DNA of 49,878 nt from contig QIGO01000067.1 of NCBI GenBank assembly GCA_003230015.1, positions 1 through 49,878 of the forward strand. The letters are read 5' to 3'. The DNA comes from Alphaproteobacteria bacterium. Lineage in GTDB: Bacteria; Pseudomonadota; Alphaproteobacteria; UBA6615. The notes beneath the pieces were generated by a model, which worked only from the letters and a program-made list of their open reading frames with translations, was not told the origin of the DNA and made no database searches. Made by a program: the position numbers and the translations under genes. Positions within the stretch are counted from its first letter, which is position 1. Every line of letters starts with the position of its first letter. Positions 44,994 through 49,300 of the stretch are shown here, piece after piece.

Positions 44994-45156
44994 TTTCTCC
45001 CCCAGATTACGCGCCGGAACACCCGGCGCACGATTACGGACCGCTGGAGGTTAGCGAAGATATTGGCGCACGGCCCCACCCATATTAGGGGGTATACATG
45101 TCTATGTTACGGCTGCGGGCTGAGCGCCGTCGGAGAGCAAGCTCGCAGCCTGGCGC

Positions 45157-45172
45157 CAGTTGACGCCAACTG
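45157..45172. repeat. Small hairpin after the LuxR array
   Basis: CAGTTG and CAACTG flank ACGC, giving a 6-bp stem with a 4-base loop. It lies 27 bases beyond the stop of the last gene of the LuxR array in the direction of transcription. No T-run follows, so the terminator role is only possible. Confidence 0.25.
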
Positions 45173-45199
45173 AACTGAGGGACATTTTATCGAGTCAAA

Positions 45200-46372
45200 T
45201 TAAGTCGCTCTCCCTTCCGAAAGAAAGGAGGCGTCCGACAAGATCAGGCGAACGAGGTCTGCTTGACTATGGGTACCTGTCTTCGACATGGCGTTCTTCA
45301 ATGTCCAGCGCACCGTGTGCTCTGAGCGTCGGCCGGCCTCCGCATACTGTCTGACAGATTGTCCGCGCATCAGCGCCGCGACCAGGTTCGACTCGGCTTG
45401 GGTCAGCCCATGAAGTTGACTGATTTTATCGGCCGACAGCGCTAGCGGCACATCGGAGTCCTTGCTGAAAACCGCTGCGACCGGACGGCGGGCCCCGAAA
45501 TCTGCTTGCGCCGAGCGGATCGGGACGACCAGCAGCACCAATGGCCGGCCCATTGACGGACGGGAGATCCGGAGCAGGCCGCCGGACCCTGTCGCAACGC
45601 CCGTGCCCTGCCCGAGCGCGCCGGCGATCAGCGCTTGCAGTTCGGCGTCCTCCTTTCGAAACGAGGCCCTAAGAAGGCCGCGTTCACTGGTCAGACCGTC
45701 ACGCCGTCTGAGGATCCGACATGCACTTGCATTGGCCTCAAGAACATGCCCGTCACGGTCCAAAAAGAACACAGCCAGCCGCGAACCATCGAGCAACGCC
45801 GCGAGTGGTCTGTTTTCCGCCGACACCGAAGCGAGAGACTGCCGAATGCGCACGGCCTGCAATACATGCGGCAGGAGTTGCCGGATTTTCTTTGTCTCGG
45901 CATCCACAAAGGCGCCGCGGCCTTTTTCCCGGATAGCCGAAAAGACAATGCTGTCGCCCGCTGGTCCGTTCATGCGCGTGATGAGTTGGCTTTGCGCATC
46001 ATATTTTGCCAGAAACTCATTATAGGTCGCCGAGCTTTGCATTTCGGTCCCGCGGAACAGCGACTCGTGATGGGTGGGGACCGCGTGCGGCAACGCAAGT
46101 ATCCGCGGCACACGCTCGTCAATCAGCCCATACTGGGATACATATTCCTTGTTGGCTTCCGGATACCTGCTGACAAGACCAAAGACCGGCGCGCCGCTGC
46201 GCCGGTCAAAGACAAGCAGATGCATATTGTTGGCGTCCAGGGCGACCGCCATATCCTGCAGGACCTGCAGCCAGACTGTTTCGTCCAAGGCTGCATCATA
46301 GAGCCGAGCTATGAGTCCGAGGACAGGTTCAGCCGGGTTTTCTCCAGAGGCCACCGCGGCGCGCCGTGTCAC
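45200..46372 (-). CDS. LuxR-type regulator, array gene 3
   Basis: A 390-residue regulator. The N-terminal part (about 15-180) is the ligand- or partner-sensing region shared with its two neighbours, starting LGLIARLYDAALDETVW. A PAS-like segment follows (LAVFFLDRDGHVLEANASACRIL, about 205-230). The C-terminal LuxR-type helix-turn-helix (about 320-385) reads HGLTQAESNLVAALMRG, then RRSEHTVRWTLKNAMSKTGTHSQADLVRLI. It is more diverged than the other two. It starts at GTG 46372, whose bases overlap the stop of the middle gene once its frameshift is repaired (GTGA). No LuxI-type synthase is nearby, so an acyl-homoserine lactone ligand is not supported. Confidence 0.88.
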   Translation of the reverse strand: MTRRAAVASGENPAEPVLGLIARLYDAALDETVWLQVLQDMAVALDANNMHLLVFDRRSGAPVFGLVSRYPEANKEYVSQYGLIDERVPRILALPHAVPTHHESLFRGTEMQSSATYNEFLAKYDAQSQLITRMNGPAGDSIVFSAIREKGRGAFVDAETKKIRQLLPHVLQAVRIRQSLASVSAENRPLAALLDGSRLAVFFLDRDGHVLEANASACRILRRRDGLTSERGLLRASFRKEDAELQALIAGALGQGTGVATGSGGLLRISRPSMGRPLVLLVVPIRSAQADFGARRPVAAVFSKDSDVPLALSADKISQLHGLTQAESNLVAALMRGQSVRQYAEAGRRSEHTVRWTLKNAMSKTGTHSQADLVRLILSDASFLSEGRAT

Positions 46373-47506
46373 GTCTCTGCGCTAACAATCGGAACCGACA
46401 ACACCAGCCGCACAATGTCCGTTTGACGTCTGCTGTCGGTCTTCGATTGGATCTGCTTTAGGTGCCAGCGGACCGTGTTTGTCGAAACTTCGTTCGTTTT
46501 CGTCCGCGTAGTCCGCCACGGACTTGCCTTGGGCTAACGCTATGGCGAGGTGAGCCTCGCGCTCCGTAAGCCCATAAAAGCGGCGCAAATTTTGTGTCGG
46601 CTGGCCGGCGGCTGTTTCAGGATCGCTGACAAAAACCAACGCCGCTGTCGCTCGCATTTCTATGTGAGCGTCATTTTGCGGCGCCGGCGTCACCAAAAGC
46701 AGCAGAGGCGAGTGACCCGTCGACCGGCGTACGGAAACGGCCCCACCCGGTATGGAGACAACGCTCGATCTTGCCTGAATAGCGCCCTTCAACGCGGCCG
46801 AAAGCGCCGAACTATCGGTTGGCGCCTGCGCTCTGAGCCTCCGATCAACGGTCCGCAGCCCGTCACTGGCTGCCACCAGACGACGCGCAAATCGGTTCAT
46901 CCACACAATGCAATGATCACGGTCGACAAAGATCACGCCCTGGCGCAATTGGTCGAGAGCATCGAGAGCTGATTCTCTGCCCAACTCGACCCACCGCGTC
47001 TTTAGGCGGATTTGCATGCTCCGCACCAAATGCTGTTTGAGGATGGCAAACAGCCTCATATCGGCTGCGTCCGCGTGCCCCTGTTTCTGAGTGCGGTTCA
47101 CCGAACAGTAGCCCTTCAACCCGTCGATGCCGGGAATCGCACCGCCGATATAGTATTTGAGATTGTATGAGTTAGTCAGCCAATCGTAATACTCACTGCG
47201 GTCCATTTCCGATTCGGAATGGTGCATGTAGTCGCAGACCACATCACGCGGGTTGCGCGCGATATAGTCTACCCGGGGATCAATGCTCAAATAATGCTCG
47301 CCGAATTCCCTTAGGGCCGCATCGTCAACGCCATGCTGGACGAGCAAAGGAATCTCTGTGAGGTCCTTGTTTGCGTAATAGGCGACGCTGGCGGCCGCTC
47401 CCATCATACCGGAGATGCCCCTCATCGCTTCGGGCCACAACGTCGGGTCCACAGCCGCGTCGTAAATCCGACCGACAAGTGTGCGGAGGGTCTCCTCAGA
47501 GTGCAT
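46369..47506 (-). pseudogene. LuxR-type regulator, array gene 2, frameshifted in its HTH
   Basis: The reading frame from ATG 47506 gives 374 residues ending at 46382. It is homologous to array gene 1 through most of its length: LVGRIYDAAVDP, DYMHHSESEMDRSEYYDW, PAS-like VIFVDRDHCIVWMN, FYGLTEREAHLAIALAQGKSVADYADENE. It then leaves the HTH frame. The next frame carries the missing part: STNTVRWHLKQIQSKT, then RQTDIVRLVLSVP, ending at TGA 46369-46371. The switch point is a tandem TTCG TTCG on the plus strand (46489-46496); removing one copy restores a 377-residue regulator whose stop overlaps the next start. As it stands, the recognition helix is lost. Either a recent mutation, a variable repeat or a sequence error. 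ATG 47506 has AAAGG upstream. Confidence 0.85.
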
Positions 47507-47543
47507 CCTCACCTTTCATCAACGGCATCGCCCGTATCGCGGG

Positions 47544-48653
47544 CTAGCTTGTTGGCGGACTGGAGAGCAAAAGTCTGATCAGTTCTGCCTGCCGAATCGT
47601 GTATGTTTTTGAAAAGATCTGTTTCAGATGCCAGCGGACCGTATGCATCGATCTCTTTTTCTGCTCGGCATAGTCTTTGAGCGAAACCCCGGCGACGAGA
47701 GCCCGGGCAAGCCCGGCCTCGGTTATGGTTAGTCCGTAGAGTGCAATAATCTGCTCCAGTGGCGGTACCGCGACGCTCTCCGGGTCGCTGATGAAGATTA
47801 GGACACTGGGAATATCGCGCGCCCAAATAGCCAGGCTCGCCGGTGCGGACGAGATCGACAATATGTAGGCGCGCTTCCCCGATGGCCGCGCCATGACAAG
47901 CGAACTTGGCGTGCCGTCCCGGACCACGCCCGCGATCGCGTTCTGCAGGGCACTTCTGTCAGTTGACGAGGCACCCCTCAAACCGTCGGCGCCCCCATAG
48001 AGGCCGTCCGCATCACCGATGATACCTTCTGCGGCTTCATTCATGGACAGGATGCGTCCATCCCTGGCCAGCACCACAACGGCGGTTTTCAGCCTATCGA
48101 TCGCGCCAAACGCGGTTTCTGCCGCCAGATTCGCGCCCTCGAGTTTCATACCTATGTCAAGAGCGCGCTCAATATGGGGGGCGAACCGGTCGAATATCTT
48201 TGCTTCCCCGATATCGGCATGGCCCTGTCGCTTGGTCCGCTGCAGCGCTACCACACCGGCGATCGGGCCGGTGGCGCTGAACAGCCGCGATCCCAGATAG
48301 TACCTGGTTCCCAGTATTCTATGAATCCAATCGTAGTATTCGCTCTTATCAATCTCAGACTCTTCGATATGCATATAGTCAACGGAAGTTCTGATGCTTG
48401 GGTTTTCGTACTGAAAACCTACCCGTTTATCAATGGATATGTAATATTCGTTATATTCTTTTAGAACAGTAGATGGCATCCCAAGAGACAGGATAAACGG
48501 TGTCTCATTCTTTTTCCGGTCGACATAATAGACAACAATGTTCTCGGCTCGGAAATGTCTGCAAACGTCAGTAAGGGCACCATGCCAGCCAGCCGGGTCA
48601 ACAGCGGCGTCGTAGATTTGGCCGACTAGGCGGCTAAAGTCGTCCTCCCCCAC
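47544..48653 (-). CDS. LuxR-type regulator, array gene 1
   Basis: A 369-residue regulator, first gene of the array. The N-terminal domain begins FSRLVGQIYDAAVDPAGW and includes SVDYMHIEESEIDKSEYYDW, closely matched in gene 2. The central PAS-like part is AVVVLARDGRILSMNEAAEGI. The intact C-terminal helix-turn-helix (about 305-365) has YGLTITEAGLARALVAG, then KKRSMHTVRWHLKQIFSKT and a final IRQAELIRLLL. GTG 48653 is chosen: GGGGG lies 5 bases upstream and its first residues align with gene 2; TTG 48665 is an alternative. Its 5' part is noticeably more AT-rich than neighbouring genes. A 37-base gap leads to gene 2. Confidence 0.9.
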   Translation of the reverse strand: MGEDDFSRLVGQIYDAAVDPAGWHGALTDVCRHFRAENIVVYYVDRKKNETPFILSLGMPSTVLKEYNEYYISIDKRVGFQYENPSIRTSVDYMHIEESEIDKSEYYDWIHRILGTRYYLGSRLFSATGPIAGVVALQRTKRQGHADIGEAKIFDRFAPHIERALDIGMKLEGANLAAETAFGAIDRLKTAVVVLARDGRILSMNEAAEGIIGDADGLYGGADGLRGASSTDRSALQNAIAGVVRDGTPSSLVMARPSGKRAYILSISSAPASLAIWARDIPSVLIFISDPESVAVPPLEQIIALYGLTITEAGLARALVAGVSLKDYAEQKKRSMHTVRWHLKQIFSKTYTIRQAELIRLLLSSPPTS

Positions 48654-48838
48654 CTCTACCCCCAAGAGATCAAGATAAAGAGACTGCTACCGTTGCGTGT
48701 AACACCCTAGATCAAACCGCAGCCAATTGCCAATGCGGGAGCCCGGGTTGGTTTGGGCCTTCTGCGACAGGCCTACCCGTTAGCCCCGGGCGACCCAAAT
48801 CTGATCAATCACGCCCCGCCGCCTCGACTAACCCGAGG

Positions 48839-49300
48839 CTAGCGACACCAGCTGCGGCGCGCACCGTCCCAGCGCCGCGCCAGGCCCTCGGCAACGAGCG
48901 AGTCGCCCACCGACCGCCCGTCGACTTCGATCACCCGGAGTTTTCGCCCGTATTGGTCCTCATCGCGACCACCCGTGTAGACGGCCCTAACGGGCCCTGA
49001 GTTCAGCAAGCTCAACAGCCGGCGCTTGGCCTTTTTGCCCAGCGCTCTTTCCGAGGCACATTTGGAGGACCGAATTTCTGGTGTATCTATGTCTTCGAGC
49101 CTAATGATATTTCCGCCAAAATGGATGGTGTCGCCATCAACCACACATTGCTGCTGGCCGGCCCGGGCACAAAACCGAAACTTGGCGACGCTACCCTGAC
49201 GCGCTTCAATGCCAACCTTTCTCGGCTGCAGATCGAACGCAAAGAATCCAATCGCCGCCCCACTGATCAACACAGTCGGTAGCCATAAAGTAGCCTTCAC
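48839..49300 (-). CDS. Thermonuclease (SNase)-family protein
   Basis: A 153-residue staphylococcal-nuclease-like protein. A signal or anchor segment lies at residues 5-23 (LWLPTVLISGAAIGFFAF). The SNase fold has CVVDGDTIHFGGNIIRLEDIDTPE (catalytic Asp, Arg and Asp), then SERALGKKAKRRL and GRDEDQYGRKLRVIEVDG (catalytic Arg in YGRKL), ending LVAEGLARRW. Four Cys residues could form disulfides outside the cytoplasm. Starts at GTG 49300 with AAGGAGG six bases upstream, a strong ribosome-binding site. It is probably a periplasmic or surface nuclease. Confidence 0.9.
   Translation of the reverse strand: MKATLWLPTVLISGAAIGFFAFDLQPRKVGIEARQGSVAKFRFCARAGQQQCVVDGDTIHFGGNIIRLEDIDTPEIRSSKCASERALGKKAKRRLLSLLNSGPVRAVYTGGRDEDQYGRKLRVIEVDGRSVGDSLVAEGLARRWDGARRSWCR

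What the first reader, a model, noticed from the sequence alone, without database searches (positions are those of the whole stretch)
46369..47506. Middle LuxR-type regulator broken by a 4-bp tandem duplication in its helix-turn-helix
The sequence shows TTCG twice in tandem at 46489-46496 (plus strand). Reading through, the protein leaves the helix-turn-helix frame right there. Deleting one TTCG copy gives a frame that continues through STNTVRWHLKQIQSKT, aligning without gap to the neighbouring paralogue (MHTVRWHLKQIFSKT). It then stops at 46369-46371, where the TGA overlaps the GTG start of the next gene as GTGA. Both the alignment length and the stop/start overlap support a recent 4-bp duplication. 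The mutant would keep sensor domains but lose DNA binding, so it may act as a dominant modulator, be a pseudogene, or vary by slippage.
Basis: seen in the sequence. Interest (0 to 1): 0.75.

Follow-up and report, generated by a model that had tools for sequence, protein, structure and literature searches.

The report
Recently frameshifted LuxR-type regulator gene
The middle one of three tandem gene-regulator genes in an environmental alphaproteobacterium carries a recent 4-base duplication that shifts its reading frame inside the DNA-binding part, so it has most likely lost its function; this is an ordinary mutation (or possibly an assembly error), with one experimentally known look-alike, TrlR of Agrobacterium.

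Summary
TTCG stands twice at 46489-46496 (+). The reading frame of the middle regulator leaves the LuxR-type (GerE) helix-turn-helix (HTH) exactly there, and the rest of the HTH lies one frame over. A family profile matches the gene up to residue 342 in one frame (308 bits). The other frame continues at once with profile positions 355-392 (49.7 bits). The spacing from the 'LT' motif to the 'TVR' motif is 30 residues in 37 of the 38 comparison genes the pattern could place; the single exception is a regex mis-pick. Only a 4-base excess gives 30 here. The out-of-frame HTH tail has not decayed: it ranks 13th of 40 tails. The event is therefore recent, or is an error. About 85-90 distinct homologues keep a complete HTH in frame. 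The window is a whole contig of a 74.6%-complete metagenome-assembled genome (MAG), with no same-genus genome and no reads available, so a true allele cannot be separated from an assembly error. Most likely this is a fresh loss-of-function allele. A dominant-negative role as for TrlR is possible but unsupported, because the neighbouring paralogues are only 25-36% identical. Slippage switching is unlikely at 2.5 repeat copies. Low interest.

The parts
46382..47512 (-). Middle regulator as it reads: 376 aa, GAF-like N-terminal domain, PAS-like domain and the first half of a LuxR-type HTH, then a 34-residue out-of-frame tail (from residue 343)
46489..46496 (.). Tandem TTCG TTCG (minus strand CGAA CGAA), the frame break
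46369..46491 (-). Rest of the HTH (recognition helix and last helix) in the other frame: EVSTNTVRWHLKQIQSKT...AET, stop TGA 46369-46371
   Evidence: 49.7 bits to family profile positions 355-392
46382..46384 (-). TAG stop used in the shifted frame, 9 nt before the GTG of the next gene
47544..48665 (-). Upstream intact paralogue, 373 aa, HTH ...RSMHTVRWHLKQIFSKT...; about 36% identical to the middle gene
45200..46372 (-). Downstream intact paralogue, 390 aa, HTH ...RSEHTVRWTLKNAMSKT...; about 25-27% identical to the middle gene

Best explanation
The middle gene descends from an intact GAF-like/PAS-like/LuxR-HTH regulator. A recent 4-bp tandem duplication (about 1.5 to 2.5 copies of AACG, the usual product of one slip in replication) put the recognition helix and the last helix out of frame. 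The product keeps the sensor domains and the first two HTH helices but ends in 34 unrelated residues, so it should not bind its DNA site. The allele is most likely a simple loss of function (an incipient pseudogene or a segregating null) that is present in the sequenced population. Shown: frameshift, its position and size, intact ancestral tail, intact state of homologues. Inferred: loss of DNA binding, absence of function, presence in real cells rather than only in the assembly.
For: Family profile: residues 2-342 in frame at 308 bits, the other frame continues at positions 355-392 with 49.7 bits, and the printed tail (residues 340-376) gives no hit. Spacing LT...TVR is 30 residues in 37 of 38 placed comparison genes and 30 in the middle gene only if four bases are surplus. 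The ancestral frame ends in a GTGA overlap with the next gene. The tail scores 61.0 bits, rank 13 of 40 in a leave-one-out test. Neutral substitution of 5% would already cost about 13 bits on average and 10% about 25 bits, so much decay since the event is implausible. 91 homologue entries, about 85-90 distinct genes, have the complete HTH in frame. There is only one copy of the locus in the genome.
Against: No reads, no second assembly and no same-genus genome, so the duplication could be an assembly or sequencing error. No expression data. The N-terminal part shows no visible decay (308 bits), which fits recency but also fits a retained function of the truncated protein.
Confidence: 0.68

Rival explanations
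1. Assembly or sequencing error: the living organism has one TTCG and an intact regulator whose stop overlaps the next gene's start.
For: The source is a draft MAG (74.6% complete, 244 contigs). The tail is undecayed and the GTGA junction intact, exactly as an error would leave them. Another MAG (G034/L073) has a homologue with two frame breaks, one beside a run of ten G.
Against: The break is not in a homopolymer. A 4-base repeat is far shorter than a read or an assembly k-mer, so short-read assembly rarely creates one (established knowledge; the assembly method is unknown). The other frame changes of a codon-usage segmentation lie close to ORF ends, so the contig does not look error-rich.
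Confidence: 0.18
2. Functional truncated regulator: the HTH-less protein dimerises with a neighbouring paralogue and damps it, as TrlR does to TraR.
For: TrlR of Agrobacterium is a frameshifted traR copy that lacks the DNA-binding domain and is dominant negative by inactive heterodimers (PMC6341043, PMC7856919). Here the sensor part is undamaged and sits between two intact paralogues.
Against: TrlR is 88% identical to its partner; the two neighbours here are 36% and about 25% identical. No relative shares the truncation. The event is too recent to show selection.
Confidence: 0.08
3. Slippage-driven on/off switching of the regulator through the TTCG repeat.
For: Gain or loss of one 4-base unit toggles the HTH frame.
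Against: Only 2.5 copies; the rate of tetranucleotide phase variation depends on tract length (De Bolle et al. 2000, cited in PMC11868660). Tandem Repeats Finder reports no array in 45000-49000, and such 4-mer pairs start at 248 places in this window.
Confidence: 0.04
4. Programmed +1 ribosomal frameshifting makes both the short and the full-length protein.
For: The needed shift is +1 and the downstream frame is conserved.
Against: No stop codon near the site in the original frame, no unusual RNA structure (z 0.26), no relative with the same arrangement, and such a shift would give a 31-residue instead of the universal 30-residue spacing.
Confidence: 0.02

Closest known systems
TrlR of Agrobacterium tumefaciens pTiR10/pTi15955 (frameshifted traR paralogue)
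   Same: LuxR-type regulator whose DNA-binding domain is lost by a small frameshift while the sensor part remains (PMC6341043)
   Different: TrlR arose by a 1-bp deletion, binds an acyl-homoserine lactone, is 88% identical to its partner and was shown to be dominant negative; here a 4-bp duplication, GAF-like/PAS-like sensor, no close partner, no function shown
Alphaproteobacterial GAF-like/PAS-like/LuxR-HTH regulators of 370-430 aa (homologues in 69 of 385 class genomes; distant similarity to NCBIfam BagY/FevT)
   Same: Same length, domain order and 30-residue HTH spacing; tandem arrays also occur elsewhere, e.g. G024 with four copies in 5 kb
   Different: This copy alone, of those examined, has its HTH split between two frames

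Membership tests
GAF-like/PAS-like/LuxR-HTH regulator family | Full-length similarity over sensor domains | tested here: met
   308 bits over profile 16-357
GAF-like/PAS-like/LuxR-HTH regulator family | Complete C-terminal LuxR-type HTH in the same frame | tested here: not met
   Profile ends at residue 342; the rest lies in another frame
TrlR-type dominant-negative LuxR | DNA-binding domain lost by frameshift, sensor retained | tested here: met
TrlR-type dominant-negative LuxR | A near-identical intact partner in the cell | tested here: not met
   Two other homologues in the (incomplete) genome, at 36% and about 27% identity
TrlR-type dominant-negative LuxR | Inactive heterodimers shown | not testable with these tools
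   needs an experiment
Slippage phase-variable gene | Repeat tract of many units | tested here: not met
   2.5 copies of a 4-base unit; no array found
Slippage phase-variable gene | Mixed alleles in a population | not testable with these tools
   no reads held
Assembly error | Reads contradict the contig | not testable with these tools
   no reads held

The most novel reading that the evidence does not exclude
A second, independently arisen TrlR-like case: a freshly frameshifted sensor-only LuxR paralogue between two intact ones in one operon, acting as a built-in damper of its neighbours.
Probability: 0.07. Interest if true: 0.5.

Novelty: new member of a known kind. Interest (0 to 1): 0.15.

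Why it matters
If real, it is a well-defined, very recent loss-of-function allele in a tandem regulator array, useful mainly as a marker for strain variation and as a warning that automatic annotation will list this gene as an intact 376-aa regulator. Only a demonstrated effect on the neighbouring regulators would make it of wider interest.

Tried and rejected
A 1-base deletion (e.g. in the TTT after the repeat) would also restore the frame but gives a 31-residue spacing, against 30 in the family, so it was rejected. Programmed frameshifting was rejected. A second copy of the locus in the genome was not found. The scan with A3 gave 43 loci, the best 35-37% identical. The structure model has low confidence (pLDDT 50.8; tail about 30); it was not used for fold searches and is only consistent with a disordered tail. 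A literature search for short tandem duplications gave nothing of use.

Full report
Observation. The open frame 46382-47512 (-) runs through this site and ends at TAG 46382-46384 with the unrelated tail SFDKHGPLAPKADPIEDRQQTSNGHCAAGVVGSDC. One frame over, the sequence EVSTNTVRWHLKQIQSKTDSRRQTDIVRLVLSVPIVSAET runs to TGA 46369-46371, and this stop overlaps the GTG start of the next gene.

Is it more than chance? The 8-mer itself is not remarkable: 2 in the window against 1.7 expected, and tandem 4-mer pairs start at 248 positions of the window. The frame evidence is decisive. A profile built from 37 homologues of other genomes plus the two neighbouring paralogues matches the gene over positions 16-357 (residues 2-342, 308 bits). 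It matches the other frame over positions 355-392 (49.7 bits) and not the printed tail. The distance from the LT of the first HTH helix to the T of TVR is 30 residues in 37 of the 38 comparison genes that the pattern could place. The one deviating value (L039) is a wrong pick by the pattern, and one further gene (L045, TTR instead of TVR) was not placed; by eye both also have 30. In the middle gene the distance is 30 only if four bases are surplus; a one-base difference would give 31. So a 4-bp tandem duplication is the best description of the change.

Age. The out-of-frame tail has kept the residues typical of the family. In a leave-one-out test it scores 61.0 bits, rank 13 of 40 tails (range 31-72). 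In a simulation, 5% neutral substitution costs on average 13 bits and 10% costs 25 bits, which would require an ancestral score at or beyond the top of the family. The change is thus recent on the scale of species divergence, or is an error. Homologues elsewhere keep the HTH in frame: 91 entries, some counted twice between collections, about 85-90 distinct genes. The only other copy not in one frame is in G034/L073, a MAG with two frame breaks, one beside a run of ten G. A further homologue in G022 has a nonsense codon near its start.

Context. The window is an entire contig (49,878 bases) of a draft MAG with 244 contigs, 74.6% complete. No same-genus genome is held; the best homologues are 35-38% identical. 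The three regulators lie head to tail on the minus strand. The first and second are 36% identical, the second and third about 25-27%, so they are old paralogues. Similar arrays exist elsewhere, e.g. four copies in about 5 kb of G024 (Sneathiellales MAG). Domain searches give weak PAS and GerE matches, and a profile search of solved structures suggests a GAF-like N-terminal domain followed by PAS (weak scores). The locus occurs once in the genome. In a codon-usage segmentation of the window, the other frame changes lie near ORF ends, so there is no sign that the contig is rich in indel errors. That segmentation is too coarse to see a shift as short as this one.

Mechanism and function. The duplication makes about 1.5 copies of AACG into 2.5, as one slip in replication would (inference). 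The protein would keep its sensor domains and the first two HTH helices and lose the recognition helix and the last helix, so sequence-specific DNA binding should be lost (from the known structure of GerE/LuxR domains; not tested). The simplest reading is a fresh null allele. The TrlR precedent (PMC6341043, PMC7856919) shows that such a truncation can be dominant negative, but TrlR is 88% identical to its partner, and here the nearest partner is 36% identical. Reads would settle artefact against allele; none are held.

Verdict. An ordinary frameshift in a MAG: low interest.

Noticed in passing
window 46370-46384 (-): In the shifted frame the middle gene is in the same frame as the downstream paralogue, separated by one TAG and 9 nt; readthrough of this amber codon would fuse the two regulators.
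   Followed up: no
L073 3600-3900 (same gene as L011, G034:C72): A homologue in a Lake Baikal MAG has its PAS region in another frame between two breaks, one beside a run of ten G; probably assembly indels.
   Followed up: partly
G024:C2 291759-296524 (L002, L010, L016, L051): Four copies of this regulator family side by side; tandem pairs also in G316, G390, G116, G304 and in Nitrospira moscoviensis (L055), so tandem arrays appear to recur in the family.
   Followed up: partly
L003 (G022:C357 9128-10129, -): A same-family relative has a homologue with an in-frame TAG near its start; the rest of the gene is intact.
   Followed up: no
window 48839-49300 (-): Small staphylococcal-nuclease-like protein (PF00565, 4e-8) upstream of the regulator array.
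   Followed up: no
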